From Earliella scabrosa (lineage: Eukaryota > Basidiomycota > Agaricomycetes > Polyporales > Polyporaceae): a stretch of DNA of 64,000 nucleotides. The notes below the pieces were generated by a model. That model was not told the DNA's origin, made no database searches, and saw only the letters and a list, made by a program, of their open reading frames with translations. The DNA is taken from assembly GCA_022605405.1 (NCBI GenBank), contig JABYQQ010000002.1:1736001-1800000 (forward strand), read 5' to 3'. Positions 36,541 to 57,610 of this stretch are shown here, piece after piece (position 1 is the stretch's first letter; each line of letters starts with the position of its first letter). The position numbers were made by a program, and so were the translations under genes.

Positions 36541-37120
36541 TGATGAACTTCAGACCTGGAAGGCTGGGAGCCGACTGTAAGTCGAACAGAGAGAGATCTT
36601 CAGTCAGTGAGCGAACGACTATATTGCATAGATAAGTACCTGTAAGTCGAACAGAGAGAGACTACAAGTACTTAGTCAGTAAGTAAGTAGAAGGCATATG
36701 TATGTAGGAGACTTACTCTTCAGTCAGTGAGCGAACGACTGAAGAGCAGAGGCGAAATGTGAGCTGCTTATATAGAGGGAGGGAAGGTAGCTGAGTAAGC
36801 GTAGAAAGCAGTCACATGTTAGCCACAAGACGATGAGTAAGAGGCATACGAGGCTATGGTGCGAGGATGAGTCAGTATGACACGAGGATGAGCACCAAGT
36901 CTGAGTCAGACATAAGGTCTGGAACTATCCGGAACATCGTAGAACGCACTGGTACGTAGAGGTAAAGTCCGGAAAGAAAGAACTATCGTACAGATGCAGA
37001 GTTATCTATATATAGTAACGAAGAAGCATAGCCCATGCTGTGCGTCATGTGAACGCATAGCCACAAGTCCATATGGGGACATATCGGTCCGGACAGTGCC
37101 GGATAACCCTAAGTTCAACA
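36541..37120 (-). repeat. 3' LTR of the copia element
   Basis: 580 bp, TG...CA. It contains short internal direct repeats (tgtaagtcgaacagagagag twice; cttcagtcagtgagcgaacg twice). On the minus strand it has a TATA box (TATATAAG, about 36,768-36,775). Confidence 0.92.
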
Positions 37121-37131
37121 CTCCCACTCGT
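37121..37131 (-). other. Polypurine tract of the copia element
   Basis: On the minus strand GAGTGGGAG directly precedes the 3' LTR start TGTTGAAC. This is the expected position of the plus-strand primer, between the RNase H stop and the LTR. Confidence 0.6.
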
Positions 37132-40100
37132 TCAAGATGTGACATAAGCAAGACCAATCTCTTGGACGAACTTCGACTGAATTGCCAAAGGCACATTCTT
37201 AGTCAGAGCGTCGGCGAGTTGATCCGCAGTCGCTACATAGAAGATCTCGGTCGATCCCAACTCCACCTGCTCTCGGATGAAGTGGTATCTAACCTCGATG
37301 TGCTTGGTCCGGCGGTCGATCACGGGATTGACAGACAGGAAGATAGACCCCTGATTGTCCAGACACATGGGAGTTGGTCGAGACATGTCATCGCCGAGTT
37401 CTTCACCGAACGTCCTCAGCCACACCAATTGACGACAAGTGTCAGAGGCCGCTTTATACTCCGCTTCGGTCGAGGAAAGCGAAATGGTAGGCTGACGCCT
37501 CGATGCCCACGATATAGCAGCACCTGCCATCAGAAAGATGAAGCCAGAGGTAGAATGCCGATCATCACGGTCTTCGGCCCAGTCCGAATCGGAGTACGAA
37601 ATCAGACCGTCATTAGACGCTCCCTGGTAGCGCAGCCGGTACGCCTTAGTACCCTGAAGATACCGGAGGACATACTTGGCATAGTGAAGATGCGCGTCTG
37701 AGGGATTGGCATTGAACTTCGAAAGCCGCGTGACAGCAAAGGCTATGTCGGGCCGCGTACCGAGCATGGCGTACAGAAGACTGCCAATCAAGCTCTGATA
37801 GCGCTGACGCGACGCATCGGTGGCGGTGTGCTCAGATGACTCTAGAACAGCACCAGCAGGGAGAGGGGTACGCGACGGCTTACAGTCGGCCATGTGAAAG
37901 CGCTCGAGAACAGACTGGATGTACTCTTCCTGGTCAATCTCGATGATCCGCGAAGCACGGTCACGAGTGATGCGAAGACCAAGGAATCGCTGAACTGGTC
38001 CCAAGTCCGTCATTTTGTACTGCTTAGAAAGCGAACGCTTCACGTGCTGTATGTGGCCAGGCTGATCGCCGAGGAGAAGTAGATCGTCGACATAAAGAAC
38101 GACGATAGTGACGTGATCCCCCCCTTGTCGCCGATATACGTAGATCCCGGCATCGGAATAGGTCCGTTTGAATCCCAGGCTAATAAGCGACTGGTGGATT
38201 TTCACGTTCCACTGACGGGATGCCTGCTTAAGACCGTAGATTGCCTTTTTCAGCAGACACACGTGATCCTCCTTGCCAGGAACGATCCAACCTTCCGGCT
38301 GTTCCATGTAGATCTCCTCATCCAGATCGCCGTTAAGGAACGCGGTCTTGACATCCATTGACTCGATGTCCCAGTCCTCAAGCGCTGCATGCGCGAGAAG
38401 GTACCGTATAGACTCGAACCGCGCCACGGGGGAGAAGGTCTCGTGATAGTCCTCGCCCCACACCTGAGTGAAACCCTTAGCGACTAGACGAGCTTTGTAC
38501 CGCCCATCGTGCTTGATGTCATAGACCCAGCGGTTAGAGACCACGTGCCGATCTTTCGGACGAGGGACAAGGACCCAAGTCTTATTCTCGAGCAACGAGT
38601 CATACTCCGCTTTCTCCGCATCGCGCCATTTCTCAGCTTCAGGCGACTTCATGGCTTCCTTGTGGGAGTTCGGAATGCCAGTTTTGTACTGAGACGCCAT
38701 GAGAAACATGAGAAGCGCTTGGTCCTCTCGCTGCGTGCCATCCGGATCAGTCCGGGCATCGACTTTAGCCGGTGGCTCGTTGCCGTATACGTTATCACGA
38801 GTCTTCGACTCGGACCGTTTACCCGCGTTCTCACGCCGTGGTCTGTCACGTGCAAGGCTGGGAGGTTGTTCTCCCACTGGAGGGTGACGTCCTCGCTTGT
38901 GAGCAGGCTTAGGCGGTGGTACAGCAGGCGGTTGAGGCGGTTGCGGCGGCGGAGGAGCAGGGGCGTCGGCTGGAGGAGGCGCTTCAGCTGGAGTTGGCTG
39001 AGCATCCGCTGGAGGGTCAGGTGGTAGATCTGGGAGTTCAGGAACAATCTCGGGATGGAGGTCGTCCTCATGACCGTCGACATCGGCTTCGGAAGCCTTA
39101 TCAGACTGATCATCTGGGAACGGATGGTCATCCGGGGTAACAGGATGATTGCCGGGGAGTTTACGAGCAGGGAAAGACTCTTCATCGAATGTCACATCGC
39201 GAGACACTACGATAGAGCGGTTGGCTGGATTCCAAAACTTGTACCCCTTGGAACCAGACTCATACCCCACGAAGATCATCTCGACAGCCTTTTTGTCGAG
39301 TTTCCCTTCGCGCTTTGCCTTCTGCACGTGTACAAAGGCTTTGCACCCGAACACTCGGAAGTAGGAGACGTCCGGAACGGTTCCATCCCACTTGGTGATG
39401 GGGCATTGCCATTTGTGTCGACGCATCGGTTGACGATTGTAGATATGAACGGCTGCATCAACGGCGAGTTGCCAGAAACCGTGACTAAGACCTGCCTGAT
39501 GGAGCATGGCCATGGCTTTTTCGACGATAGTACGGTTCCAGCGCTCAGCGCGTCCATTCTGCTGCGGAGAGCCAGGCATAGTCTTCTGGTGCTCGATCCC
39601 GTGCGAACGAAGAAGCTCAGAGAACTCGGTAGAAGTGTATTCTCCCCCTCGGTCCGAGCGGACCTTCTTGATCTTTCGACCGGTCTGGGTCTCAGCCCAC
39701 GCCTTGTAGTCGAGGAACGCTTGGAACGCATCCGACTTCGACTTAAGGTAGTAAGCACGGGCGAGTCCGGAGTAGTCATCAATGAAACCGGCGAAATACT
39801 TGTAACCTCCGATAGCTTGTGTGCGCATCGGGCCATCAAGATCGGTGTGAACGAGCTCGAGTGGTTCCGTAGCACGCTTATCAGAAGGCGGGAAGGGGAG
39901 ACGAGTGGATTTGCCCCAGGCACATCCTTCACACGGTTCATCTTCGTCTTCAGGGGAATCAACTGAATCAACCCCTCGGACGTTCTTCGGGAGATGGCGC
40001 AGCGCGTCCTTGCCGAGATGACCAAAGCGACGGTGCAAGGTACGAAAACGGCTGACGTTAAGATGAACACGCTGGCCATTGTGAAGTTCGAGCTTAGCCC

Positions 40101-41436
40101 AGTAGATATTGCTCAGGACGTTGTACTCCGCTTCAAGGATCTTGCGACCCTTGATTCGAATCGTCGAACCAAATTTGACAGCGCCTTCTGGCAGCTTGTC
40201 AAAGATGCACATCTTCCCATCTCCTTGGACAAGGGAGTACCCGTTGCGCTCAATGGTGCCTGTCGAGAAGATACGACCTCTCAACTTCGGGATGTAGTAC
40301 ACATGGGTGAGCGCGATCGGAACTTTGTCACCATCAACCCAAGTGTTACCACGGACCGTGCCCTTCCCGAGAGCAAGGATCATGTTGCTCGCATCAGCAG
40401 TATTGAAGCTGATGGGCGTATCAAACGGCTGATACTCGGAGAAGTCACTTAGGTCGCCCGTGATGTGTTGAGAGGCACCTGAGTCCATCAGCCATGCAGT
40501 CCAGTTCTCACTAGAGGCAACGAGGGCCTCGGGGTAGAAAGAACCAACAATGTTAGATGACGCAACTACATTTACAGACTGAGACTCGACGACGGTATGC
40601 GCATGGGGCTGATTGTCCTTGTTATTTCCTTTGTCCTTGTCCTTATCCTTGTCCTTCGCCTTTCCCTTTCCCTTGCCTTTGCCCTTGGGCTTCTTCTCGG
40701 GATGCTTGTCCCAGCAGTTAGACTCATGATGATTAGAGCCACCGCAGTGAGAGCAAGGACCCTTAGGCTTAGGCTTGGTCTGCGAGACCCGGTTCGCAGA
40801 TTGTCCGGCCTTGCGCAGCGACTCCTCGGCCAAGGTCTTGGACATGATGTCCTCGACGGTGACCTTGTCGACGTCGATGGTCGCCATGAGCGCAGAGATC
40901 ATAGACCGATAAGACTCCGGAATCTTCGACAGAAGGAGGAGGGCCTTCATCTGGGCAGAGAGCGTCACCTTGTTCTTGGTGATGTCATCCATGCGGTTGA
41001 CGATACGCATCATCTGATCCTGCAGGGACTTCTGCTCGTTCATCCGAGGTTCAGCCACAAGGGTCTCGAACTGTCCCCAGACGTGAGCACTGTTCGGCGT
41101 GCCAAATTTGTCCTTCAGGGACTTCCACATGTCTGCTGCGGTCTGTTCCCGAGATGTAGTGGTAGAGGACCCACTGGTTGTAACGGTGTCGAGAATTTCC
41201 GCATCGAGGATGTAATGGAAGCTCTGAGCGACCCGCATGTACATCATGCCGCGAGCCTGCCCGTCGAGCTTGTCCCAGGACTCCTGCTTGTCAGCAGCAG
41301 TCGGACGTTTGGTCTTGCCGTTGACGACGTCCCAACAGCCCATGAAGATGAAGTAGCCCTTCATCTTGGCAGACCAGTCGGTGTACTGGTTCGCCGACGA
41401 AAGGGAAGGGATAGAGTCGAGCTTGACGTCTCCCAT
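37132..41436 (-). CDS. Copia Gag-Pol polyprotein
   Basis: One uninterrupted 1,434-codon frame. The order is a Gag region (DWSAKMKGYFIFMGCWDVVN), zinc knuckle CSHCGGSNHHESNC, aspartic protease site WLMDSGASQHITGD, and GAG-pre-integrase HRRFGHLG. Then come integrase (HTDLDGPM, FIDDYSGLARAY, VRSDRGGEYTS, PQQNGRAERWNRT), a Pro-rich linker, reverse transcriptase (MDVKTAFLNGDL, VVLYVDDLLLLGD), and RNase H (SSTEAEYKAASD, DNQGSIFL, KHIEVRYHFIRE, DQLADALTKNVP). All catalytic landmarks I looked for are present, so it is potentially competent. The same frame stays open upstream of the ATG for 115 codons to the KDZ insertion, so the original protein may have begun further upstream. Confidence 0.92.
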   Translation of the reverse strand: MGDVKLDSIPSLSSANQYTDWSAKMKGYFIFMGCWDVVNGKTKRPTAADKQESWDKLDGQARGMMYMRVAQSFHYILDAEILDTVTTSGSSTTTSREQTAADMWKSLKDKFGTPNSAHVWGQFETLVAEPRMNEQKSLQDQMMRIVNRMDDITKNKVTLSAQMKALLLLSKIPESYRSMISALMATIDVDKVTVEDIMSKTLAEESLRKAGQSANRVSQTKPKPKGPCSHCGGSNHHESNCWDKHPEKKPKGKGKGKGKAKDKDKDKDKGNNKDNQPHAHTVVESQSVNVVASSNIVGSFYPEALVASSENWTAWLMDSGASQHITGDLSDFSEYQPFDTPISFNTADASNMILALGKGTVRGNTWVDGDKVPIALTHVYYIPKLRGRIFSTGTIERNGYSLVQGDGKMCIFDKLPEGAVKFGSTIRIKGRKILEAEYNVLSNIYWAKLELHNGQRVHLNVSRFRTLHRRFGHLGKDALRHLPKNVRGVDSVDSPEDEDEPCEGCAWGKSTRLPFPPSDKRATEPLELVHTDLDGPMRTQAIGGYKYFAGFIDDYSGLARAYYLKSKSDAFQAFLDYKAWAETQTGRKIKKVRSDRGGEYTSTEFSELLRSHGIEHQKTMPGSPQQNGRAERWNRTIVEKAMAMLHQAGLSHGFWQLAVDAAVHIYNRQPMRRHKWQCPITKWDGTVPDVSYFRVFGCKAFVHVQKAKREGKLDKKAVEMIFVGYESGSKGYKFWNPANRSIVVSRDVTFDEESFPARKLPGNHPVTPDDHPFPDDQSDKASEADVDGHEDDLHPEIVPELPDLPPDPPADAQPTPAEAPPPADAPAPPPPQPPQPPAVPPPKPAHKRGRHPPVGEQPPSLARDRPRRENAGKRSESKTRDNVYGNEPPAKVDARTDPDGTQREDQALLMFLMASQYKTGIPNSHKEAMKSPEAEKWRDAEKAEYDSLLENKTWVLVPRPKDRHVVSNRWVYDIKHDGRYKARLVAKGFTQVWGEDYHETFSPVARFESIRYLLAHAALEDWDIESMDVKTAFLNGDLDEEIYMEQPEGWIVPGKEDHVCLLKKAIYGLKQASRQWNVKIHQSLISLGFKRTYSDAGIYVYRRQGGDHVTIVVLYVDDLLLLGDQPGHIQHVKRSLSKQYKMTDLGPVQRFLGLRITRDRASRIIEIDQEEYIQSVLERFHMADCKPSRTPLPAGAVLESSEHTATDASRQRYQSLIGSLLYAMLGTRPDIAFAVTRLSKFNANPSDAHLHYAKYVLRYLQGTKAYRLRYQGASNDGLISYSDSDWAEDRDDRHSTSGFIFLMAGAAISWASRRQPTISLSSTEAEYKAASDTCRQLVWLRTFGEELGDDMSRPTPMCLDNQGSIFLSVNPVIDRRTKHIEVRYHFIREQVELGSTEIFYVATADQLADALTKNVPLAIQSKFVQEIGLAYVTS

Positions 41437-41772
41437 GATTGATAAGAGAAAGTGCGATGAGTCGAGATAGTCCTCCGAGAAGTCTACAGATGTTGTTACC
41501 GGTGTGACCGGCGGAAGCGGTGTTGCGATAGGAGGAGGTAACTCGACGAGAGGAGGAGGGAGAGTCTCGAATGGCTCAGGGATAACCTCCGGAGTAGGAG
41601 GGATTAGGACGATGAAAGGAAGAGGAGTGGTATAGGGTGTGTCTGATGCGACTGGAAGGGCAGTGTTGACTCCAGCAAGGAAATCCTCTTGGTCAGGAGA
41701 GGGGAAAGCCCACTTGAATGTGTCAGGATAATCTTCGGGTTGAACGGGAACCCCGTTGTACCGATGAGGACA

Positions 41773-42010
41773 GAGCCTCTTCAGTGAATGTAACTAGTTG
41801 AAAGTGGGTAGGTAGTCTATGTTATCTAGTTGCAACTAGTTGACGGCACGATGACTCCTTGTCAGGAGTAACTAGTCGTGACTAGTCACCACGGCGCCTG
41901 CTGTCGAGAGTAACTAGTTGTTAGTACTACTTAGTAGTAGTAAGTCATAACTAGTCAGCCTCGGACTAAGTACTAGTAGTACTTGCTAGCAGTGACCCCG
42001 GGTTGCAAGT
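41773..42010 (+). repeat. Left subterminal repeats of the KDZ element
   Basis: Dense copies of aactagt and its variants (taactagttg, gtgactagtc, ctagtagtac) within about 230 bp, matching the motif cluster at the other end. Such clusters are typical transposase-binding arrays. Confidence 0.7.
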
Positions 42011-42212
42011 CATGTTTTGATCTATTAGAACCCTCTATAGGATATGAGTACATTCTGATAAATCGCATACAAAAAGAGGCACAAGAACATCTAGATTATC
42101 GTTGAAACACATCAAGCAGTGAGTTGCGTGTCAAACTCGACGACTCGGACACTTGCTGTGGCGTGACAGTGGGATGGTGACGTTGCCATCCATATCGTCG
42201 ACGTTATCTCCA

Positions 42213-43437
42213 TCAGGCAATGCTTATGCCATCGGAGTCCGCCTCCTCGGAGTCCAAGTCCGACTCGTCACCGTTGGCCAGCCCACAGAAGCGGAGCATG
42301 TCAACATCGACGGGTTCAGCAGGAAGCCCACGCCGCTCGAGCTCTGCCTTGGCGCGCTGATAACTCAGATCCCACCACCGTTGTTCTTCGAGCTCCTCTG
42401 ACCAAAGTGGTCCCCCAATGTCACCTAAGTTCTATTGTGAGTCCTCGCAATGCACCGCACGTCAAAACAATGTACTCACCGGTCCGTTTGTCTATGCCTG
42501 GCAGTATGGTAACTCCTGCCTTGACCCAGACCAAGTCCTGCCCATCGTCCAGGGCGTACAGGAGTACGTCAGCCTCATATACCTCGCAAGCCGTCCACCT
42601 GTCTTTCCATGATGCGAAGTAAGCGATCCGATCAGTGGCGTCGAGCCCGAACGGTTCGAACAGCAGCTCGATCGCTGTGGTTTGGGTCCAGATAAACTCA
42701 TACTCCATTGGTTGCTCGAAGTCCTAGGGGGTCTTTGGTGTTCACAACGTCGGTTGATAGAAGAAGAAGATACATACATCATAGTACGCACACACCTTCC
42801 AGGTGCGGCTCGCCTTCACGGGTGGAGGAGCTTGAAGTTGAGAAGCGCACGGGACATGCGCCACCGCGGACGTTGCAAGTCTGTGCTCGAGAGCTGTGGC
42901 ATGTGAGGGTGCAGCCGCTAGGTGGCTTGCACGCTGCCGATCTAGGAATTCCAGGTTAGAGCAGTATGTACGGTTGAGATAGATGAAGTTGTTTGCATAC
43001 GAGCGTGAGAAGCGCGAGTCGTGATCGCTGGCATGGCAGGTTGCTGAAGTTCCGCGGCCTTCTCACGGACGGTCTCCAATTCGGCAGGCGTCAGGCGTTC
43101 AGAAACGTACTGAACAGCGCCTTTCCGAGGGCATCCGTCATCCGAGCACTACGATGGACTCAGCATGACTTGTACTACTCATGAGAGTCTACTAGGCAGT
43201 CTAGGCCGCACTCACAATGACATAATATCGCCCGCGGTTGTCGTTATCATCCCGGTACTGGAGTTGCTTCCTGTACGTAGGGTGTTTACAACGCTTGCAT
43301 GGTCCCTTAGTGTCCGCTATCGCTTTGATGAAGTCTTTGAGTGCAAGCAATACTGGATTGCTGGTGTCCCTTGTCTGAGTCGCTGAGCGGGAAGGCGTGC
43401 AAGGGGCACTCGAAGCGGTTGAGGTGGGTGGAGGCAT
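42213..43437 (-). CDS. KDZ-element cargo gene with GRF-like zinc cluster
   Basis: I recognise no named protein. The start is at 43437 (MPPPTSTASSAPC). Exon 1 contains CKRCKHPTYRKQLQY and NRGRYYVI. After a GTGAGT intron the reading continues CSDDGCPRKGAVQYV. The Cys-x2-Cys ... GRYY ... Cys-x4-Cys layout resembles a GRF-type zinc finger, a nucleic-acid-binding module. Downstream exons give FEQPMEYEFIWTQTTAIELL (about 42,719) with YFASWKDRWTACEVYEADVL, and a last exon with GGPLWSEELEEQRWWDLSYQ ending in an acidic tail ESDLDSEEADSDGISIA (stop 42,213). Middle splice sites between about 42,960 and 42,720 are uncertain. It lies wholly inside the KDZ element and is probably an accessory gene. Confidence 0.55.
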
Positions 43438-43577
43438 GTTGAGTAAATCCCCGTCGAGAGGACGCCCTGCTATTTAACACCTACCGGTGGCCCAAATATT
43501 GCTCACGAGGATGCGCGTGGCCGTGAACTCGGAAATAAATTGACATAGTTACTATACATACAATAGAGCTGCAATCA

Positions 43578-45969
43578 TCAAACCTGGCTCTTGCGTCCGT
43601 TGGTCTTGGCACGCTTAGGGGCACTGCGCACATGTCAGTGGTAGCACGATCACGTAGAATTGAGGTGCTCTACCTTGTGTGGTGGTCATCAGTGGACTCA
43701 GCCTTGCGCTTCAGGACATTTGCAGCAGACCGCAGTTGGTCGTCTCGCGGGGGAGCCTGACGATTGCGGGTGCCACGACGCACTGATAGTTCACTCTGAG
43801 GCTCCGGCTCTGGTGCGCGGGCCTTCTGAGGAGCTTTGGGAGCTCGAGCCGGTCGAGCTTTGCCCTTGGCCACAACGCTGGCACCCACCCGTCCAGGGAC
43901 AGACGACCCATGCTCCTCCTCTTGACCAGGTCGTCCATGCATGGCGGTGGCCGCGCCGGCTTGGGATGTGTCAGCGATGGGCTCGTTGGACTTGGTGGCC
44001 TGCGTCGCAGGCCCCGTTGCCGTTGCGACGGACTCAGCGTCAATGCTCGTCGGGGTGTGCTCAGCATCGCGGCTCGTCGGTGCTGGCTTAGCGTCGAGGC
44101 TTCTCGAAGGCTGATTCGTTGGAGCGGGCTGAGCGTCGAGGCTCGTCGGGGCGGGTGGAATGCCGCAGCTCGTCGGAGACTGACGCGTCGGACCGGGTGC
44201 AATATCGCAGCTCGTCGGGCAAGGCTGAGCGTCGAGGCTGATCCTGGTGGGCGGAATGACGCAGCTCGTCGGGACAGGCTGAGCGTTGAGGCTTGTCAGA
44301 GGCTGACTTGTCGTAGCAGGCTGGGCCTCGAGGCTCGTCGGGGGCTGACGCGTCGGACCGGGTGCAATATCGCCGCTCGTCGGGGAAGGCTGAGCGTCAA
44401 GGCTCATCCGGGTGGGCGGAATGTCGCAGCTCGTCGGGACAGGCTGAGCGTTGAGGCTTGTCAGAGGCTGACTTGTCGTAGCAGGCTGGGCCTCGAGGCT
44501 CGTCGGGGGCTGACGCGTCGGACCGGGTGCAATATCGCCGCTCGTCGGGGAAGGCTGAGCGTCAAGGCTCATCCGGGTGGGCGGAATGTCGCAGCTCGTC
44601 AGGACAGGCTGAGTGTCCAGGCTTGTCAGAGGCTGACTCGTCGGCGTCGGAGTGGGTTGTGCCACGAGGCTCGTCAGACCGGGCGCAAGGTCGCAGCTCG
44701 TTGGGACAGTCTCAGCATTACAGGTCGCCGGCGCGTGCGGAATGTTGGAGGGTTGATTGTCGCGGCTCGTGGCGGCGAGCTGAACGTCGGGGGCAAGTTC
44801 GGGTAGGGGTGGTGCATACTTTCGAATCCAGGCATCGATAGCTTCGTGTGCTTGTGGGATCTTCTTGAGTTCCACCACAATGTCATCAGGCGCGTTGGGG
44901 GTGCTCGAAACCCTGGTTAACCTCATCAGTACAACAACAAGTAACATCGATACAAAAGACATACATCCACTTGCGCAGTTTCCCGCCAGCCTGCCAGCCA
45001 CCGTAGATGGTGAGCATAGCGGTCTTCGTCTGGGAGCTCAGACTGTCCACGTTATTCTGCGTCGTGTACCGTAGGTTGTTCATGAGCCTGCAGAGAGACG
45101 CTCAGCTGTGAGTCGGTTGCATTCATGTAACTACTATGACGTACTCGAGCCTGGCCTCAGCTGGTGACGCCGCCACAGGTGGAGCCGCAGTCGACTTCGA
45201 GTTTGACGAAGAAGGTTGAGGATCGGCACGACGTTTGTCGGCCGCTGCAAGCTTTGCTGCTTGTGCCTCCGCCTCAAAGGCGCTGAACGCGCCCTTCTTC
45301 TTGGCCTCTTGAATGGCCGCCGTGTACGCCTTGTTGATCGCACCAACGACATCTGACTGTCTGGTGACGCCCTCAGCGGTTGCTCTCTGGCGGGTCGCAT
45401 CGCGGATCTCAGGATGGGCCGCTATGAAGAGATCGCGTGCGCTTTTGGCACGCACGACAGGGGCAGGTGGTTCTGGCGCAGCAAGGAGGTTCGTTGGAGC
45501 AGGCTGACTGTCGCGACCTTTCACAAGCTTCGCCCAGTTGTTCTCCACCCACTTTTTGGCTTGCTACAAGACGACAGCAACTTAGCAGGATGGCGGAGGA
45601 GAAATCAGCTGAGCACGTACGGCATACTGTCCAGCAGTTCGTTTGGTCGCTTCCTCTGGCGTCTCCATCCGACCGAGCTCCGCAGAGTACATGGGTATGT
45701 CGCGCGCCCAGTGCGCATCGAAGTCCTTTGCGACATCCGCGGCATAGCTGGCGCGCCCAGACCACTGGCTGTTAGGGCCAAAGTACAAGCCAAGATCGCG
45801 TTGGGCCCGAGCAGTGATCCAGCTGAGTTGATCTATGCCTCGCGTACGGTCAACCACTAACCACTGCTTCCCTGGAGGCATGTCGACGGCGGAGTAGAGA
45901 TCTACGGAAGGTTCGTCAAGTCAGATCTCAAGGTATGTAACATTAAATACCTGCTCGTGTGGTGGCCAT
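43578..45969 (-). CDS. KDZ-element cargo gene with Pro/Ser/Thr repeats and basic tail
   Basis: Function unknown. The start is at 45969 (MATTRA), spliced to DLYSAVDMPPGKQWLVVDRT. The next exon has KKWVENNWAKLVKGRDSQPA, then a helical segment SARDLFIAAHPEIRDATRQR ... AINKAYTAAIQEAKKKGAF that loosely recalls an HMG-box. Then a short exon LRYTTQNNVDSLSSQTKTAM, and the large exon from about 44,930 with LKKIPQAHEAIDAWIRKY. That exon continues into a low-complexity region of TSxDAQPxPTS-type repeats, including a 55-residue block present twice in tandem (165-bp period, about 44,281-44,610). The last exon gives a basic, NLS-like end PKRAKTNGRKSQV (stop 43,578). An in-frame ATG at 46,080 is an alternative start. 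Nuclear DNA-binding accessory protein is an inference only. Confidence 0.5.
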
Positions 45970-47698
45970 TGCGCCTTGTATGCTTGCAGCTTTGGTTTGA
46001 CATAGCACATAGCGGTGGTCGTTGTAAGCGCCGGTGAAAGCGATACTTGGCCACGTTCCGGGTCCCAGTCGCCAAGTCATGAGTCGCCACGTAGACCCGA
46101 TGTTGTCAATGCCAATGATGAGACATAGACGTGGCGACTCAGCGACTCAAAGTTGAACGAACACGGCGATAGACCACCAAGGTCGTTCGGCTGGATCTCT
46201 GCACTGGTATGATGTACACTCCGAGATTGACCACCACGGTGAGGTCCGCACTGTCTGTGTTGCGTAGATAGTAAGCTAGAATATACAAGGAATGAATGAA
46301 GGCGGCGATTCACTGATTGTAGTAGAGTGGGTTGCGAGGATGTGTCTTCGCATCGTAACGGCAGAGCGCGAGTTACATTGCATGGGGTCTGGACAATAGA
46401 GGCGGGTGAGCAGCGAGGATACACGACGGCGAATTTGACTGTCGATCACGTAGGAGGTGGGCCGATTCCCGCGAATCGGAGCCATCGACGTGCATAAGCT
46501 GTCACGATACGGTGGTGAGAGGTTGGTCGACTGGGCTGAATACGTGGTGTTGGGGTAGAGGGGAACAGAGGTGACCGCCCGCGTATGGTCGAGGTTGGGC
46601 GGAGGAGAAGAACGAGAAGGACCTTGTGATCAGCGTCATCACGGCAACATCGAGGTATTCCAAGTCACGTACACGAGCGAAGGGGCTGAGAGCCCGCTGC
46701 TTGCGCATTACAACTTGGGGACGGCCACGGAGCGAGATACGATCACACGGCCAGGGAACGATATAGTATGGAAGGGACTACGTGGATTCCGTAGATGAGA
46801 TCTATGCCTGCGGCAGAAGCGGAGCGCGAGAGACTGAGACAAAAGAGATCTCAGCATACTGCTTGGGTGCGCGCGTGTGGAGGGGATTATGAAGGTGTAC
46901 TGATAGATGGAGACACTCACCACTTGCTGGCCGTAATGCCCAAAGCGAGCGGAGCGCGCACTCTATGAAGAGCGGTGTACGTTCTCCCGCACTGTAGAGT
47001 GATGCCGTGTAGGCCTTGAGCCAGGCTTGAGACTAGCCTGTGCGTTCGCGCAACGTGCCCTTGAGTGATGGGGACCGGGTCCAGGCTGTAGATTTGAACA
47101 CAGATATCAGGAGTTCGGCGTGGACAGGTTCTGCGGGCTTGACCAATGTCTGTTGAGCGCAGACGAACGGAGGGAAATTTCGCGCTCTTGCGGAGGAGGG
47201 GCGGAGGAGGAGGGGTGCGCAGTGGCACTGCAGCAAAGTGACGAAGTTACTGACGACAGTCGAGAATACTTGCAACGGTGCGCGTCGGACGAAGAGATCT
47301 GAACCCGACGCTATGATGGAACGACGAGAGACTGAGACTCGAAAGAGGCTGCAGGCTCCGGGAGTCTGGAGAGAGCGCACGGGCGCGCGCGCGAAGCTGC
47401 CGGACGTTTGCGAGGTTCCGAGCACGGAGCGCTGAGCGCGCGAGGACGGCGGACGCCAGCGTCGCCGTCCTGATTTTTCATCGACCTCCCTTCTCCCACC
47501 ATCCCTCCTCTCTCCTCTCCATTCCAAAGCTCACTGCCAGCTCACAATTGTCCCCCGCCGGTCACACCCACGCCTTCGACACCCAGCCTGCAGAGGGGCG
47601 CCCCAGAGTGCGAAGTGCAAGACGACGGGCGTGTCGCTTGGCTCCCTTCTCCACTCTCCCGCCGTCTCTCTCTCCTCTCGCAACTGTCAGCTCAAGAC
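45970..47698. other. KDZ interior without a supportable gene
   Basis: Only short frames rich in Arg, Ser and Pro, with no splice-linked chain I can defend. It probably contains the divergent promoters of the flanking cargo genes. Confidence 0.35.
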
Positions 47699-50100
47699 AT
47701 GCCTTCAAGACGAAGCTGGAATGGAGGACTCCTTGCGACTCGTGAGGAGCAGGTGCAAGATCATGATATCGACATGTCAAAGTGAGTTATACCCCTGCCT
47801 CTCAAATTTCGATGGTGAAGGCGTGGAGTTGGCATTAGGCAGCACTTCGTTTCTTCGAAACTTGAGACGACCCCGTGCGTGTCGTTGTTTGAGCTGCTCG
47901 GGACGGAGATGTACTTACTCCTTGCGCCGCCGGCGTTCGACACCCAACGCGCGACCTGTGCGTATCTCCCCTGTCATCCTGAACCGTCCTTGTGTAGCAT
48001 AGCCATCCCTTCTCCCCTGAAACTGTTCGCTTCCTCGTTCTATGCAAGCGTTCTGACACTGTGTTCGTCTCCCGACGGTCATTCGTCCCGTGCGGCTCCA
48101 TTTTCCACGCCTTTGCTCGCTCGCCATCGCTCCACTCCCCGTGTCTGTGGACGGCTCGCTGACGGACCCTCTACTCGCAGGTGCGATCCTTGGTCCGCCC
48201 TCGAGAAAGTCGTGGCAGCTCGGCTGCAGTCCTCCTCGCTGCCAGAGTCGGTCGTATACATAGTCTACCAGGGTCTACCTCGAACAGTTACTCTTGACCC
48301 AGGTGCGTACAACGCGTCCAGCCGTGTCGGCCTCCCGAACACGTTCGTAGGCTACAGCTGAACTCTCGCTCGCACGTCTGCAGGTCTTTTTTGTGGCACC
48401 CTCGCGCTGCTCAAGGGCGAGTCTGTGGGCGGCGGTAGCGACGCCAAGGAGCGGAATCAGGAGCGGAATCAGGAGGGATATGTACCTGGTACGTCTTTGT
48501 CGAGTGTCGCCGTGGTGGAAGGGTGTGCCTCGACGTGCTGTGCGCGGCGTGGTGATCCCGACGCCGACCATTAACTTGGCGGTCATTTCACAGCAACTGC
48601 GCTTTTTGACTATGTGCTCCGTTGCGCTCTGCTGGAGTACGTAGTCGTCTCTACCTACCAATAGGGAGAGCCCAAGGTCTGCTTTTGAGCTCTTCAGTGG
48701 CTGCCCTGTGCCAAAGGCGCCGAATCAGTGCAGACCCTCGTCTGCACTGATTCGGCGCCTAGAGCATGGGCACAGACCCGTACCACTGGCAGTGTTATGG
48801 TGAAACTGCAGGATTAAACCGTGCTCCGACCTTGTCTACTTCGTGCTTGACTGTACTAGTATTACTGACTATTTGATGGTCAAGGATGCGTTCTTGGCAA
48901 TGTACTGCCTGAAATGGCCGTTGGCAAGCGCCGAACCGCCTTCCGTTAACGGTAGGTCGCCGGGCACCTATCGAAGTCCGTGGACTCATTTCAATGATTG
49001 CTGTCAGGCGATCATGCTAATCTACTCTATTGGTCGTCCAGATGCATGCCATACCGACGTTTTAGGAGCTTCACGATGCAGCACGACTACACCCAATGGC
49101 ACGGGGATGTGCCCGAGCAATACCGTGACGCTCTGCCGGTCAGTCCGGTTTGGGACATGTGCCCGTCTATCAAAGTGCGTATAGACCAGTGTGGCATGAT
49201 ACCGCGTGTACTCACCCCTACCACGTTGCATTAACAGGAAGGGGTTCGAAGAGCCCAAGCGGGCCACCAGTGGCTAGGGTATCAGGTTGTGGAGGGAGGA
49301 GATGATCTCGGACGGGGTGTCGCTCTTCTGCGACGCACTGTATGAGTCGGCGGCGTGAGACCTGGACGACAGCCAGACGGACGCATGCGGCGAGCGTGAC
49401 TTCGAGGTGCTTATCAGCCTCGTCGTGCTGAGGCAGGAGCAGTCGTGTGCAAATTACTAGCGCGAAATTGATATCGTCTGCGCCGCATCTGCCCTCCTAC
49501 GTGCGCAACTCGGAGATGAGGCCACTGATGGACGCCCTCGCTAACAGTGTCATGCCGCAGCCTTGCCTCTCATCTCTGCCCTTCGCGCGGAGCCGGGCGA
49601 CTGCCACATCCTGACTGGTTCCCTAGCTTAGGGCCTCAAGCCGTCCAAGGACACTCTCAACTTGCCGGCCCATAAGCCCGAGATTGTCGCACCCATAATC
49701 GTCCGCCTACTCACCTTGGATGCCCATGGGAAGTGTCGGGGATCGAGACTCGCAAGATACTCCAGAACGCGCCCGTGGACTTCTCCACTCACGACACGTC
49801 GCAGAACAACTGAAGACGCCCGCTGGCTCTGGTCCACCAACACAGATGCAGCTCACCAAGGCACAGGGTGCAGCCGCACGTCGGATTACAAACGGCCACG
49901 CGCTTCTCGGGCTCTATCACAAGGTACGCCCCAAGCGTACTGCTCACCCCGCGCTATCGTCTAACTCCGAGCGGCATTGAGCTGTGCCCTCGGCGAGCTA
50001 GAAACAGGGCATCTGTTCCACTAGCTCCGAACACTCGGTCAGTGCTGGCCACTTCGGTATTGGTGCTTGCGTCGACGGATGTCGACAACAAGAACTGAAG
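47699..50100 (+). pseudogene. Remnants of one or two spliced cargo genes of unknown family
   Basis: A plausible 5' part starts at 47,699 (MPSRRSWNGGLLATREEQVQ) with a GTGAGT donor, then QHFVSSKLETTPCVSLFELL. Further downstream are ALEKVVAARLQSSSLPESVV with YIVYQGLPRTVTLDPG, and LFCGTLALLKGESVGGGSD. More coding-like pieces occur at about 48,870 (DYLMVKDAFLAMYCLKWPLA), 49,075-49,175 (MQHDYTQWHGDVPEQYRDAL ... WDMCPSIK), 49,660-49,800 and 49,830-49,930 (QMQLTKAQGAAARRITNGHA). Stops and frame changes separate the later pieces, so this stretch looks decayed. No family is recognised, and the first block may be a separate, still intact gene. Confidence 0.35.
48715..48760. repeat. Perfect 21-bp hairpin
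   Basis: Arms 48,715-48,735 (aggcgccgaatcagtgcaga plus c) and 48,740-48,760 are exact reverse complements around the 4-base loop cctc. It could fold as RNA or extrude as a cruciform. No terminator-type T run follows. Confidence 0.9.
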
Positions 50101-50118
50101 TGAGCTAAGTCGGTTCTG

Positions 50119-50260
50119 CGTGAACATCAAAGCGCCGTCATGTTAGGTGGCCCATTCACAAGCCCGGACGACCCCAGCGTGCAAAATAACGTGAACATCA
50201 AAGCGCCGTAATGTTAGGTGGCCCATTCACAAGCCCGAACGACCCCAGCGTGCAAAATCA
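50119..50260 (+). repeat. 71-bp tandem duplication
   Basis: Two head-to-tail copies (50,119-50,189 and 50,190-50,260), each starting cgtgaacatcaaagcgccgt, with about three mismatches. It lies just upstream of the cargo gene that starts at 50,310. Confidence 0.9.
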
Positions 50261-50309
50261 ATCTCTCTATTAAGTGCCGACGTACAGCTCTGCCCCGTTG
50301 TGATGCACC

Positions 50310-51307
50310 ATGCCTCCGTCCACCTCTGCAGTGCGATCTGCTGATCCCGCCACCCAAGGCAACACCACAACATCCCCGCGTCCCAGCCTCCTGTACACTC
50401 CAACGCACCAACTCACGACGGAGACTTTCACTCAGCTGATGGAGGAGCTCTTCCCAGACAACGGGGTTCCTGGGGGTCGGCGTGGCGATGTGCACGACAT
50501 ATGGCTGTTCGTGTATAACGCGGTACGTACACCCTCCTACCGGGGTTCCACTATGACGTAGATGTACTTACGGCTATCATACAGGCAGACGAGTTCCCGA
50601 CAATCATCTTGGCCACCGGGTTCCTCGAGGGAACTCGTGTGCGCCTGACTTTCAAGCAACCTCACGTATACGACCGGCTTGGTTTGGACTACGACAGCGA
50701 GGCCGATACGCCACTCTTTGAGCGCTACCGCCCCGAGGCCAAGACGTGGGGTGAGCCACTGCGCCCCGACATCCCGGAACTGTTCGCAGCGGAGCAGCAG
50801 ATCCTCTACCGTCGTGCCGGCCTCACTGAGTGTCCTTGTGTTTCACACTATACCGCCATCGCGTCTCGACACTTGTCCCGTCCTGGTGCCTCCATCCAGA
50901 ACGCCGAGGTCGACGTCGGAGCATTTCAATCCCAGAAGAACGACCATGTCCGCAGGCAATCCACTTCCCCGTCCCTACCCCTCACAATTGGACCCCGGCG
51001 CTCTCGTATCCAGCAGGAGAACGTCACGCTCCCTGCGAACGCGCCTCTAATCAGCTCATCGCCAGATGGTCCATGGGTGCCCCTCCGACGCAACGATCGT
51101 CGTGTCCACCCGTCGCGAGCACCTGCGGCTGTGCGTGCACGCATGGGCTCTGACGGACAGGTTGTCTCGAACAAGCGCGGTCAGACCATCGACACTGACG
51201 AGACTGTGGATGACCTCTCCTGTGGCGCTAAGCGTCTCAAGACCAACTTACATGGCGCCGGTGACAGCTATGACAATCCGATTGTGTTGTATGACGACAA
51301 AGACTGA
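50310..51307 (+). CDS. KDZ-element cargo gene, hypothetical protein
   Basis: Two exons (50310-50522 and 50585-51307) join in frame to about 311 residues. The N-terminal domain contains LTTETFTQLMEELFPDNGVP and DVHDIWLFVYNAADEFPTII; the middle has YDRLGLDYDSEADTPLFERY and a Cys pair (TECPCVSHY). The C-terminal third is polar and basic with candidate nuclear signals (NKRGQTIDTDE, GAKRLKTNL) and an acidic end VLYDDKD. No family is recognised. It lies 277 bp upstream of the KDZ transposase on the same strand, which makes a role in the element's life cycle plausible but unproven. Confidence 0.6.
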
Positions 51308-51583
51308 TACATACTTGAGTACTTACCACCTACGAATACTAGTAGAACCTCTCGGCCATCAAGTAATACTGCTGCATTCTCTCTTCCCCTCAGTAGCTAT
51401 CCAAGTAATATCTACTATACGGTAGTTTGCCCTTCTGAGCATGACATCAATCTGAAAGTCTTGTCTTTGCTGTCATGAGGTGCCGACGAGTGGCGTGGGG
51501 CATTAGTCAGTGGAGTGGTTTCAGCGCCAAACCCCAACGACAAACATACGTCGCTCTACCACACACCCGCATGAGCGCTGACA

Positions 51584-54500
51584 ATGCCGCCGAAGAATCG
51601 AGGACAACGTGCCCGTCGCCCAGCTCGCGACCATGTAGCGGATGAAGGCGAGGAGGTAGCACCTGAGGTTGACGCGGTGGCTACAGTGATGATTGGCCCA
51701 AATGGTGCTGAGGAACTCGCATATCTATCACCCCGCAAACCACCACCTCCATCCGTCATCCCGACTCTTCCCCCTCTACCGTCGCTCTTTGCATCATCAA
51801 GCTCTGTCAAACTTGATGCTCCGGCAGCCAAGTCTGTGGAAACGAGCAGTTCACCGAACCCTATCCACGATCGTGAGCGAGCCCCAGAAGCCGTGGCATC
51901 GCAAGGCAAAGCACCGGCTAAGGTCAACAACACGATTGTAAGTTGGAAGCCCCTCACACCTTGCCATGAACCTTATGTGTAAATCTACCAGGCACCCCAC
52001 GAATATATGACGGACTTCCTCACCAATTGGGCGCAGAAGCTCCTGGATGTTTTCCGGTCTCGTGAGGTTGATCCACTCATTGACACCCCATGTTCCCTCT
52101 GTCCGTCGCTCGAAGGTCTTGCCCATACCCTTGGTATTCCCCCTCCAGATCCTGGCGCACATCTCCCTACTCCCACCCCCATTCTTGACGAGAGCCGCGA
52201 CGCTGTCACCGACTCAGCCACACTGGGAAGTTCACTCACTGGGACCACCGCAAAGTATCGATGCGTGTCTTGTTTCAATGCCCCCCCGCTTTGCGGCTCA
52301 TGCATGGTCCGCACTCACCTTTGGAATCCGTTCCATCGTGTGCAGTATTGGAATGGTCGCTACTTCGAGAAGGTCTCACTGGCCGACCTGGGCCTCGTAA
52401 TTCATCTCGGTCATCATGGCTCCATTTGTCCCTCCACGTCTCAGCACCATTCCAGTCGGCCTCGCACCCAAAATATGACAGTCGTGCACACCGACGGAGT
52501 TCAGACATCGCGCGTGCAATACTGCGAATGCCCCTTGGGGCCGGGCGCGCGCGAACCGACTGACCGACCGCTTCAATTGTGGAACATCGGTCTGTGGCCT
52601 GCAACGTACAAGCGCACACAAACCGTCTTCACGCTAGATGTCCTCAAGTACTACGATCGACTGTCCCTCCAAGCGAAGACGACGACTATGGACTTCATCG
52701 CCGCGCTTCGTCGCCTCACTGACCATGCGTTTGGACATTATCGTGTGCCGGTGCGTCCAACATCCCAGGACTTGTATCCCGATGCTGACCATGCCCCCGT
52801 AGGACCGTTACCGGGAGTTCATGACAGCATATCGCGAGTTCACCTACATTCAAGCGTTGCGACGCTTCGGGCTCAACGTTGCCAAGAAGCTGGCGCCTCG
52901 AGCTCTTGCCATCTATTGCCCTGCTTGTCCACTCCCTGGTGTGAACATGGATCCTGGCTGGGAGAAGCGTCCGCGAGATGAACGGTGGGGTGCACTTTTT
53001 TATCAACACCGTAAACCCCGGTCTCATGAGCATTGACAGCTACATTGATGCTTTCCACTACGCCAAGGATGGAAACTTTGTTCTGTGCCAGCATCAGAAG
53101 AAGCTCGACAAGCTCGACTTTGCGCTTATGGATGGCGCTGGCACGTACGCAGACAACGGCGAGTATTCCCAGTTTCTGAGAAAATCAGAGGGTGATGTGG
53201 ATGCTCAGCGCGAGGTGAGCATTAGTATACCATCCTCATGCTACCTTCACTAATTGCCGGCTGTTGCAGACCGACACCTGTAGCAACTTCAAGGCAGGAA
53301 ACACGCGCTACAAAGGGAAGTTGAAGAGCGGACAAGTCGGATTATCATGTTCGCGACACGGCTTCATCCTGCCATGTGGAACTGTTGACCTTGACGGCGC
53401 AGAGAAGTGCGTTTACGTTGTGGCACCCATCTATCTTGCACTGATCTTGCACGCTAGATACGGACCTGTCGATTTTGCCACCGTCAACGGTGTGCTACCA
53501 TGGCTCACTCTCCTCCTTTTCTTCTCCTCGTACGACATCAATTGCAAGTACGGCATCAATTGGCTACGTCGCCTGGGCGCCATGTTTGCGCTTGATCGGG
53601 TCTGGCCCCTCATTCGTCGATGCATCCCCAAGTGGCACATCAACGCTCACAGCGGCGTGTGCAAGTGGATGAATTCCTTCTACTACATGCCCGGCGTAGG
53701 TCAGACAGACGGAGAGGAACCGGAGCGCAAGTGGTCCGTCATGAACCTGCTAGGACGTGCCATTCGAGAGATGACACTGGGTCATCGTCAAGACTACCTC
53801 AACCTACACTTCGCTGACTACAACATTCAGAAGCTCTTCCGTCTTGGTATGTATTCATGTCTGGACTGCCACATGTACTGACTCCGATGATCAGCGAAGA
53901 CGCTAATTGAGCGTTACACTGAGGCAGTGAAGTTCTGGAAGAAGAACGCCGAAGAGCTGGCTGACTTCGAACAGACTCTCACGAGGAACCAACTCCCACT
54001 TGCGCAGTGGAAGGAGGAGGAGCGCGTCTTCATGGAGCAGATGATGGACGAGAACATTGATCAGAACGACATCAAGAATCCGTATGAGCCTCCGCCAGAT
54101 ACGGGTAAGCTTGGTATCCCTATAGTATATGATGCAGCGCTCAACAATTCTGCAGCCCCATCGCTGAAGGCGGTGCGCACACTCCTTGATGAAGAGGAGA
54201 AGAAGAAGGAGGCAGCGCGGGCTGCAAGTCGACGACAGAGTACGCGAATGTCAAAGAAACGTACCCATGACGACCTGGAAGCGGAGGACGCCTTGTCTGA
54301 CGAGTACCGCTTGACTCAGCTATACCTGGATGGGCTTGACATTCAGCGGGACCAGTACGTTGCATGCAAGCTGATGAAAGTGTGTTTACTCATTTATTGA
54401 ATGCAGACGGGCTATTCTTCAGCACCTATCACAGACTGCTAAAGATGCAGACGACGAGCTGATCATCCCACCAATCGTCAAGCGTCTCCGCACCCCGCTC

Positions 54501-55470
54501 AAGCAGAAGATCGCGCTATGGTTCGAGACACACACTAAGCTCATGGTCCCAATCGTCGACGAACTCCGTGAGGTCGCCGAGTTTTCCCATATCGACTTTC
54601 CTGCTCGTGATTTGTTTGCTGAGCCCGAAGACGAGACCTTGCTCTTTCCTCACAACTATCCCTCTGCTGCCCGCTCACATCCTCGTTTCACTACCATGAT
54701 CGATGTCGAACGCCGCATCTTGCGCGCACAGGCCAGCGATGCTCTGCGAGAGGTTCGGCAAAAGCAAGGCCTCCATGCGTTTCTCTGGAAGAAGACGGAG
54801 GGCACATTCGGGCAGTTGGCAAAGACTCGCAACCAGAAGACGCTCAAAGATGTCCGGGACAAAATCGAGACCGCGCGGCTCGACTACGAGCGTGCTCGAA
54901 TGAACCTCTACACCATCGCCGAGGAATGCGATCTCACGGACTACCGACCACTTACCGCCGACGACTGCAAGCAGATGACGCTGTATCATCACCAAGAGGC
55001 GCCAGGCATGAAGAAGAAGGAGGTTTCCTGGTTCTTTCGTGACGGGAAGCTCCACGGGGAGGAGATGGATGCGTACACGCTCGAAGGTGTGTGAGTATCC
55101 ATCCTTGTGCCGGTGACTGCCTCTGACTCAGAACATGGTCCAAAGCGCTCCGCGTCGAATGGTTCCGAGCCAGCGCGCGTTGCTGTCGGTGGAAGGAAGA
55201 AGTTCGGATCCTGGAAGCAGAGATGCGTCGCACACAGCGGTCATTTCTGCACCAGTACCGTACGTGGATGGCACGCTCTGTTGTCACATCAACGTCAAGC
55301 CTCCTTGAGCGTGGCGCGGCCGCATATGGTGCTCGGTAAGTAATGACAGTGGGTATATTTATATCACACTGTATTCAATGTTTGGCAGGCAAGCTGCCAT
55401 GTGGCTACGGCTCCTGAAGGACGCACAGGAGATATTCCCTTCCGAGCAGCACGTGGAGTACTCGCTGTAG
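51584..55470 (+). CDS. KDZ transposase with CxC2-type cysteine cluster
   Basis: KDZ transposases mobilise large DNA transposons in basidiomycetes. Exon 1 (51584-51937) is a low-complexity head; exon 2 starts at 51,992. The CxC2-like cluster is seen in CVSCFNAPPLCGSCMVRTHL ... WNPFHRVQYWNGRYFEKVSL ... LGHHG, with further pairs CECPLGPG and CPACPLPG. The catalytic region has YIDAFHYAKDGNFVLCQHQK, DFALMDGAGTYAD, SYDINCKYGINW, WHINAHSGVCKWMNSFYYMP and TDGEEPERKWSVMN. A long helical C-terminal part follows (ERYTEAVKFWKKNAEELADF, LTDYRPLTADDCKQMTLYHH), ending SEQHVEYSL at 55,470. About ten introns are inferred, one with a weak donor near 52,983. All joins I checked keep frame, so the gene looks intact. 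Roughly 1,000 residues, normal for the family. Confidence 0.82.
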
Positions 55471-55708
55471 TTGCTGCATTGGGGTTTGACTAGTCGATAG
55501 TCAGCACATCGACGACGACTAACTACTTATTAGTGTATTGGTGACTAGTTGAAAGGCTAACTAGTCACCCCCGGAGACTAGTTAACGATGATACTGACAT
55601 GTGAGGCAGGCTATCTAGTTAGAACGCGACTATAATCGGAGTCAATATGTAGACTAGTTGGATTTGACTGAATAGTCAGCAAGAACTAGTTACGGTCACT
55701 GCAGCTAT
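55471..55708 (+). repeat. Right subterminal repeats of the KDZ element
   Basis: A cluster of aactagt/actagtt motifs mirroring the left end, finishing with aactagttacggtcactg, the partner of the left-end inverted repeat. Confidence 0.7.
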
Positions 55709-55717
55709 ATGAGGACA

Positions 55718-56438
55718 AGGACTCCGGTGACAGTTGTACCAGAAGCCGTCCTCCGGATGGAGATGAGAATCGGCAGGGTATTCCTCGTCGAGAACGTGTG
55801 GAAGTTCCTGACAAGAGTCGACGGTGGGTTTGTAGTCAGAGGAGTCAGACGACGACTGGGAGTCAATCAGATCCTCGACTTCCGCCTCAGAGGGAGGAGA
55901 TGCTGGTGTCGGCTCCAAAACTGTGGTCTAGAAGGGTGCGATGATTGACGATGCCACGTGCGAAACGGTAGATGGGGAACACCTATTGAGGCGAGCCAAG
56001 AGAGTCAGGAAGCTGGAGATCCCGACAATCTGGATAGAAGTTGCCAACTGTGCCCCGAAAGACTATAGTAGCTATACGAGAGCAAAGGGTACGGTAAGGA
56101 GGGTCCACACGGTTGTCCTCCGTCTCCAAAGGTGATAAGCACCCCGGATACAACTGCTGGCGGGCGCAAGTGCGTGGCCTGGCAGAGGGATACCTGAAAG
56201 CCCAAATGCCTCGAGAGCACAACAGGCTGTACAACAGTACTTAGCTACGCGACAACTAAACAAAAGCGCTCAGGGCTGCGTCACGAGCGCAGGAATGTCC
56301 CCCTGGCAGCAGTGTCGGCGGGCACAGTCAAGAGGTGAGGAAAGATGGAGGGAGCACGGGCAGAGAGTCGACGAAGAGAGGTGTGCGCACGAAGATGTCG
56401 ACGAAGTAGCAACCGGTCAGAGCGCAGGGCTCATAACC
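55718..56438 (-). other. Copia leader region upstream of gag
   Basis: Sequence between the 5' LTR and the KDZ insertion. On the minus strand it contains an open stretch (EAEVEDLIDSQSSSDSSDYK ... FWYNCHRSPCPH) that is in frame with the segment left of the KDZ element, so it belongs to a longer leader reading frame. That frame is opened by an acceptor-like TAG/CAG near 55,925; an upstream coding exon (about 56,230-55,985) is possible. Confidence 0.5.
56415..56438 (-). other. Copia primer-binding site, complementary to an internal Met-tRNA segment
   Basis: The plus strand next to the 5' LTR reads agcgcagggctcataacc, which resembles the D-stem to anticodon loop (CAU) of a methionine tRNA. The retroelement RNA carries its complement directly after the LTR. 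Priming from an internal tRNA site or half-tRNA is known for Drosophila copia. There is no tRNA acceptor stem, so this is not a tRNA gene. Confidence 0.65.
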
Positions 56439-57018
56439 TGATGAACTTCAGACCTGGAAGGCTGGGAGCCGACTGTAAGTCGAACAGAGAGAGATCTTCA
56501 GTCAGTGAGCGAACGACTATATTGCATAGATAAGTACCTGTAAGTCGAACAGAGAGAGACTACAAGTACTTAGTCAGTAAGTAAGTAGAAGGCATATGTA
56601 TGTAGGAGACTTACTCTTCAGTCAGTGAGCGAACGACTGAAGAGCAGAGGCGAAATGTGAGCTGCTTATATAGAGGGAGGGAAGGTAGCTGAGTAAGCGT
56701 AGAAAGCAGTCACATGTTAGCCACAAGACGATGAGTAAGAGGCATACGAGGCTATGGTGCGAGGATGAGTCAGTATGACACGAGGATGAGCACCAAGTCT
56801 GAGTCAGACATAAGGTCTGGAACTATCCGGAACATCGTAGAACGCACTGGTACGTAGAGGTAAAGTCCGGAAAGAAAGAACTATCGTACAGATGCAGAGT
56901 TATCTATATATAGTAACGAAGAAGCATAGCCCATGCTGTGCGTCATGTGAACGCATAGCCACAAGTCCATATGGGGACATATCGGTCCGGACAGTGCCGG
57001 ATAACCCTAAGTTCAACA
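56439..57018 (-). repeat. 5' LTR of the copia element
   Basis: 580 bp; no difference from the other LTR was noticed. It carries the minus-strand TATA box (about 56,666-56,673) expected to drive element transcription. Confidence 0.92.
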
Positions 57019-57610
57019 GCTGTCATGCTTCTAAGAATGGAAGCAGTCTCAATTTAATAATAGACTTACTGCCGTCCATTTGCTTTTGCACACAGACCAA
57101 GTCTTCTCAGCTCCAAGAGTGCGGACAGCCTCCACCGGAGGGGCAATGGCCTGCCAGACAGTCTGAGAGAAGTTCATACCATCTCCGCCCCTGTGCTTCT
57201 GGCCCTCCACTGCTCCGAGAAGCACTATGACATCGCCGTCCGTCCAGAAGGCCCGGGTGGCTGCTCCGGGGGCTACTGGTACTGCTCCGAGAGGCCCTGG
57301 TGCGGCGGCCACCACTGGGAGAGCCGGAGGAACTGGAGCCGGAGCTGGAGCTGGCACTGGGACTGGAATGGGAGCCGCCGGGGCTGCGGGAGCTGTGGCT
57401 GGAGCTGCAGGTACAGGATCGGCCATGCTGTCACCAAGGGAGGGAGGAATGGAAGCACAGTGCGACGAGGAAGCACTCTACGACGAGTACGGACGCGTTG
57501 AGCGCCAGCTGTCGCGTCCATTCGCGTCTGGTCACACATGATCACACATAGTCACACGGGTGACTTCTCATCACACAATCACGGCGTAGCTCCGGAGAAT
57601 TGCTTTTGGC

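What the first reader, a model, noticed from the sequence alone, without database searches (positions are those of the whole stretch)
41764..55717. KDZ transposon inserted in a copia reading frame; boundaries proved by frame rejoining
A 13.9-kb element is flanked by atgaggaca on both sides. Its ends share CAGTGAnnGTAACTAGTT. Removing the element plus one flank copy makes the copia frame from the right flank (ending SPCPH) run on into the left flank (RYNGVPVQ) without a shift, down to the gag ATG. Complete KDZ elements with defined ends, target duplication and empty-site logic are rarely documented in fungi.
Basis: partly seen in the sequence, partly recalled or inferred. Interest (0 to 1): 0.75.

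Follow-up and report, generated by a model that had tools for sequence, protein, structure and literature searches.

The report
KDZ transposon inserted inside a copia retrotransposon
A 13.9-kb jumping gene of a known family landed inside another jumping gene of a wood-decay polypore, and uninterrupted copies of the host element show where it went in; it is a well-defined but ordinary member of its family, with one possible novelty, a second gene that may encode a DNA-bending protein.

Summary
A 13.9-kb element interrupts a copia retrotransposon (36541-57018; 580-bp LTRs identical) in a polypore genome, very probably Earliella scabrosa. The empty site was read base by base at 24 distinct copia copies (all those fetched); each has one ATGAGGACA. 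The element carries an open 11-exon CxC2-KDZ transposase gene (1124 aa) with its acidic motifs. The edges hold in relatives: homology to a C8 locus starts at the element's first base (GAGCC...), and a second, complete relative on C17 (11,066 bp) has ends GAGCC...CTATA and an 8-bp target duplication. The window's duplication is therefore most likely 8 bp (TGAGGACA); the ninth base is best read as chance. The shared CAGTGAnnGTAACTAGTT is not the tip but lies 9 bp (left) and 7-8 bp (right) inside. Both elements have CTAG palindromes clustered in the terminal 250-400 bp and a divergent second gene whose domain is predicted to resemble an HMG box (weak evidence). No second full copy or donor was found. 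Fungal KDZ elements with defined ends and 7-8 bp duplications, some active, are already published. New member of a known kind.

The parts
36541..57018 (-). Host copia retrotransposon, LTR to LTR (LTRs 36541-37120 and 56439-57018, 580 bp, no difference), 5-bp target duplication GCTGT at 36536-36540 and 57019-57023
   Evidence: RVT_2, rve, Retrotran_gag_2 in ORF 37132-41793
41765..41772 (.). Left copy of the target duplication, TGAGGACA (8 bp; 9 bp ATGAGGACA from 41764 is identical at both sides)
55710..55717 (.). Right copy of the target duplication, TGAGGACA
41773..55709 (+). KDZ transposon, 13,937 bp with an 8-bp duplication (13,936 bp if 9 bp), ends GAGCC...CTATA
41779..41799 (+). Left terminal inverted repeat core (18 of 21 bp match the right end)
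   Evidence: score 27; highest of 300 shuffles 21
55684..55704 (-). Right terminal inverted repeat core
41793..41977 (.). Left subterminal cluster of ACTAGT palindromes (7)
55489..55690 (.). Right subterminal cluster of ACTAGT palindromes (6)
43670..45881 (-). Second gene, divergent from the transposase; exon 1 about 45621-45881, exon 2 within 45123-45563 (HMG-box-like helical domain), later exons to 43670 with proline/threonine-rich repeats; exact splicing of later exons unsure
   Evidence: homologue in the same arrangement in the C17 element; fold
46398..49871 (.). Interior stretch with pieces 64-81% identical to a repeated locus at C25:45-112 kb and pieces 72-74% identical to C3:2661-2663 kb; origin unresolved
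50310..51307 (+). Two-exon gene (50310-50522, 50585-51307), 311 aa, annotated as hypothetical protein C8Q76DRAFT_791031; no other relative found
51584..55470 (+). Transposase gene, 11 exons, 10 GT-AG introns of 41-55 nt, 1124 aa, no internal stop; CxC2 and KDZ domains; D442, D562, E625 in the model

Best explanation
The segment is a complete, potentially autonomous KDZ-superfamily DNA transposon. Shown: its sequence interrupts a copia element, with a short target duplication and uninterrupted copies elsewhere; its ends are shared with relatives; its transposase frame is open. Inferred: the CxC2-KDZ transposase binds the GTAACTAG-type motifs repeated near both ends, pairs the ends, cuts at GAGCC and CTATA, and joins the free 3' ends to target strands 8 bp apart, so that gap repair makes an 8-bp duplication. 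The divergent second gene is kept in a relative whose transposase is about half identical, so it probably helps transposition, possibly by bending DNA.
For: Empty sites at 24 of 24 distinct copia copies read. Open frame across the site in a natural copy. KDZ (PF18758, 117.2 bits) and CxC2 (PF18803, 88.8 bits) in the gene model, over cut-off; alignment with Ganoderma sinense GSI_06620 along its whole 833 aa, 58% over 893 columns; YD and ER motifs in 17 of 17 aligned sequences, the window's included. Homology of C8:1731582 begins at element base 1 (34 bp, 94%), and that of C8:1640688 runs to the last base of the 13,936-bp query (56 bp, 80%). C17 relative: GAGCC/CTATA ends, 8-bp CCTGCCGT duplication, open frame when its flanks are joined, Plavaka domain in the right flank. 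ACTAGT: 13 of 15 copies in the terminal 250 bp of either side; shuffled mean 0.15, maximum 2.
Against: No second full copy of this element and no donor found, so mobility beyond this one insertion is unproven (the DNA search skips very common words). The C17 duplication rests on an 8-mer: about 0.6 such matches are expected by chance in the area searched (my estimate), and no empty C17 site was found, so its weight comes from lying exactly between GAGCC and CTATA and from the open frame. 9 bp cannot be excluded for the window copy; C8:1640688 shares one base more (ATATAG), so 7 bp cannot be excluded from it alone. L069 (C8:1731582) lacks a recognisable right end. Binding, cutting and joining are inferred, not tested.
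Confidence: 0.9

Rival explanations
1. The duplication is truly 9 bp and the element ends ...CTAT, making a KDZ lineage with 9-bp staggered cuts.
For: All 9 bases ATGAGGACA match at both sides and the natural empty site holds them once.
Against: In the C17 relative the duplication is 8 bp and the right end reads CTATA; C8:1640688 also reads CTATA. Published KDZ duplications are 7 or 8 bp, or 4-8 bp (PMC12730594, PMC12810828, passages read).
Confidence: 0.15
2. CAGTGA...TCACTG are the true tips (as 5'-CA..TG-3' in Kyakuja) and the 9 and 7 outer bases are donor DNA carried along.
For: The best inverted match begins only 5-6 bases inside the ends, close to CAGTGA; Kyakuja has CA..TG tips (PMC12730594, section read).
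Against: The outer bases are themselves conserved: GAGCCTCTT in C8:1731582, GAGCC in C17, TATAG inward from the right end of C8:1640688 and C17.
Confidence: 0.03
3. The insertion is not a transposition but a host segment that carries a KDZ gene and was inserted by repair or ectopic recombination.
For: Single copy; interior pieces resemble other loci.
Against: Short exact duplication, paired ends with inverted repeats and motif clusters at both edges, and a relative with the same ends.
Confidence: 0.03

Closest known systems
Zisupton and Dileera (KDZ superfamily)
   Same: KDZ transposase; 8-bp target duplication as given for Zisupton and for the Dileera Zisupton-1_PGr in PMC12730594 (passages read)
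   Different: That Dileera encodes a TET/JBP dioxygenase; none was found here in the ORFs scanned. Tips GAGCC/CTATA and a short imperfect inverted repeat; place within KDZ not settled here
Kyakuja-1_LB and Kyakuja-2_LB (PMC12730594)
   Same: KDZ superfamily, Agaricomycetes
   Different: Kyakuja is described with 7-bp duplications, CA..TG tips and no inverted repeats; here about 8 bp, GAGCC..CTATA and an inverted repeat
Cryptococcus KDZ1, KDZ2, KDZ3 (PMC12810828)
   Same: About 9-11 kb, KDZ transposase with a CxC cysteine cluster, 8-bp (KDZ1) or 4-8 bp (KDZ2, KDZ3) duplications
   Different: CxC1 and TIRs of 139-241 bp there; CxC2 and a 21-bp imperfect core here; activity shown there, not here
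CxC2-KDZ protein GSI_06620 of Ganoderma sinense
   Same: 58% identical along its whole length
   Different: The element around it was not seen

Membership tests
KDZ superfamily | KDZ transposase domain over the curated cut-off | tested here: met
   PF18758 117.2 bits against 26.6
KDZ superfamily | Acidic catalytic motifs kept | tested here: met
   DGNF, YDINC, ERKW in the model; which residues are catalytic is recalled, not from a call
KDZ superfamily | CxC cysteine cluster fused to the transposase | tested here: met
   CxC2 88.8 bits against 27
KDZ superfamily | Target duplication of 7-8 bp | tested here: met
   8 bp most likely (9 identical) in the window, 8 bp in the C17 relative
Kyakuja | 7-bp duplication, CA..TG tips, no inverted repeats | tested here: not met
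   GAGCC..CTATA tips, inverted repeat 18 of 21 bp
Zisupton or Dileera | Place in the transposase tree | not tested
   No named reference sequences were on hand and no tree was built
TET+ KDZ elements | TET/JBP dioxygenase gene inside | tested here: inconclusive
   No such domain in the 17 of 30 ORFs of 120 aa or more in the element that were scanned, nor in 3 gene models
HMG-box proteins (second gene) | HMG-box sequence profile | tested here: inconclusive
   No HMG-box profile listed for either homologue up to E 10; the best is DUF6388, E 0.0012 in C17 and 0.018 in the window, below its cut-off; HMMER's filters drop most weak matches
HMG-box proteins (second gene) | HMG-box fold | tested here: inconclusive

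The most novel reading that the evidence does not exclude
A polypore KDZ lineage, seen in two elements with about half-identical transposases, carries its own divergent gene for an HMG-box-like DNA-bending protein beside the transposase, which would help fold end regions studded with CTAG palindromes into a synaptic complex, as host HMGB1 does for RAG (the RAG part is recalled; one RAG complex title names HMGB1).
Probability: 0.3. Interest if true: 0.55.

Novelty: new member of a known kind. Interest (0 to 1): 0.35.

Why it matters
It gives a KDZ element whose insertion point is fixed by 24 natural empty sites, plus a relative with the same ends, which makes the transposase binding sites and the second gene directly testable. 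The second gene, if it encodes a DNA bender, would make these elements self-sufficient for a function that related systems borrow from the host.

Tried and rejected
Coupling-sequence idea: I considered that the 9 and 7 bases between duplication and CAGTGA were donor DNA; rejected because they recur in C8 and C17 relatives.

More copies: the longer end patterns with up to 3 mismatches found only the window and one C8 site each. The two C8 sites are 91 kb apart and face as one element would, but their flanks do not match as a duplication, so I do not call them a pair. The decayed C23 relative has only 3 CTAG sites in the 1.4 kb past its transposase remnant, no cluster. The other loci checked with a KDZ domain cover too little flank to show their ends.

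C17 empty site: the right flank finds Plavaka-like copies about 67-70% identical, and short matches of up to 100% identity further out, none of which reach the duplication; the left flank is single-copy. So it stays unproven by an empty site.

Protein searches: the 311-aa protein found only itself; the second gene found nothing at E 0.001 among the 7994 candidates scored. The PDB sequence search with the transposase core gave one match, E 0.77, to an unrelated protein. An ungapped divergence count against sibling copia copies was spoilt by indels on the right side and is not used. A paper search with 'KDZ transposase' plus 'target site duplication' found none.

Full report
What is there. The window lies in contig C2 of a 51.7-Mb, 48-contig genome. 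The 311-aa protein predicted from this element is 100% identical to hypothetical protein C8Q76DRAFT_791031 of Earliella scabrosa, whose longest contig is 3,668,086 bp, the length of C2; the source is therefore very probably that polypore (Polyporaceae).

Host. A copia element runs from 36541 to 57018 on the minus strand. Its LTRs (580 bp) are identical and it has a 5-bp duplication GCTGT. Its ORF holds gag, integrase and reverse-transcriptase domains. So the host looks young, and the KDZ insertion is younger still (inference).

Empty sites. In the best-matching other copies the left-flank query matches up to the last base of atgaggaca and the right-flank query from its first base. Reading the loci, 38 of 38 from copies other than the window, which are 24 distinct sites, have one ATGAGGACA followed directly by the right flank. 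By coordinates 34 of 39 right-flank matches pair with a left-flank match, 24 with 9 bp and 10 with 12 bp of overlap; 5 on each side are unpaired, within tables capped at 40. The reading frame runs open through the site in the one uninterrupted copy read for it, L027.

Edges. The pattern search for the inner end motif with up to 2 mismatches gave 13 matches (2 of them the window's own ends) against 30 for the reversed control, so most are chance; two of the others proved related. C8:1731582 carries GAGCCTCTTCAGTAAACGTAACTAGTTGAAAGTG, and homology begins exactly at element base 1; it also carries the transposase C-terminus some 250-490 bp in, so it is an internally deleted and truncated relative without a recognised right end. 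C8:1640688 matches the last 56 bases of the 13,936-bp query at 80% and shares the next bases too (ATATAG). Stricter patterns find only the window and these two places, with no control match.

A complete relative. C17 holds a transposase homologue (38-51% identical in the tblastn blocks; 60% in the core block). CTAG motifs cluster at two places 11 kb apart. There, GAGCCGATGTAGGTA... and ...TACCTACATCTATA are flanked by the same 8 bases, CCTGCCGT; the element is C17:73134-84199, 11,066 bp. Joining the flanks leaves an open frame through the site, and the right flank encodes part of a Plavaka transposase (91.8 bits). No empty C17 copy was found, and an 8-mer match in the area searched is not rare in itself (about 0.6 expected). 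Since the right end there is CTATA, as in C8:1640688 and in the window if its last base is 55709, the window's duplication is most likely TGAGGACA, 8 bp, with the ninth base a coincidence.

End anatomy. The inverted repeat core matches at 18 of 21 bases (score 27 against at most 21 in 300 shuffles); C17 has a longer imperfect one (score 40 against at most 22). ACTAGT occurs 15 times in the element, 13 of them in the terminal 250 bp of either side; shuffled mean 0.15, maximum 2. In C17 TCTAGA has 10 of 11 copies in the terminal 400 bp of either side, and its left end has a 15-bp tandem array with the same GTAACTAG core. I infer that these are transposase binding sites.

Literature. PMC12730594 (abstract, section 3.2 and passages read) gives 8-bp duplications for Zisupton and a Dileera, and 7 bp, CA..TG and no TIRs for Kyakuja. 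PMC12810828 (passages read) shows active Cryptococcus KDZ1-3 with TIRs of 139-241 bp and 8-bp or 4-8-bp duplications. PMC8290104 (passages read) says TIR motifs of KDZ and Plavaka were characterised in Marasmius oreades; I did not see that supplement. PMC7641404 (passages read) links CxC2 with intact KDZ in Pleurotus. [quoted passage not shown] I saw no report of an HMG-box gene in KDZ elements in the listings; one search listed 8 of 91 papers, most were seen as listings only, and the library holds open-licence papers only.

Verdict. A genuine and well-bounded KDZ insertion, younger than its young host; ordinary as a kind, useful for its exact ends, and with one gene worth testing.

Noticed in passing
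window 46398-48429 and C25:45-112 kb: Pieces of the element's interior match several places in one 67-kb stretch of C25 at 64-81% identity, in at least three runs in the same order, as if the element holds an old copy of part of a repeated locus; not identified.
   Followed up: partly
window 48715-48760: Perfect 21-bp inverted repeat with a 4-base loop; similar copies of about 46-53 bp on C11, C13 and C23.
   Followed up: no
window 50119-50258: Two adjacent copies of a 69-bp unit, 97% identical, just upstream of the 311-aa gene.
   Followed up: no
G000 genome: 129 matches to the KDZ domain (matches, not elements: one gene can give several), including three loci (C1, C7, C11) with 0-2 differences over 3.8 kb, so other KDZ families are multi-copy and may be recently active.
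   Followed up: partly
C8:1640688 and C8:1731582: A right-type and a left-type end 91 kb apart, oriented as one element would be, without matching flanks.
   Followed up: partly
C17:73134-84199: The related KDZ element sits inside a Plavaka-type reading frame, so both complete elements studied landed in coding regions of other transposons.
   Followed up: yes
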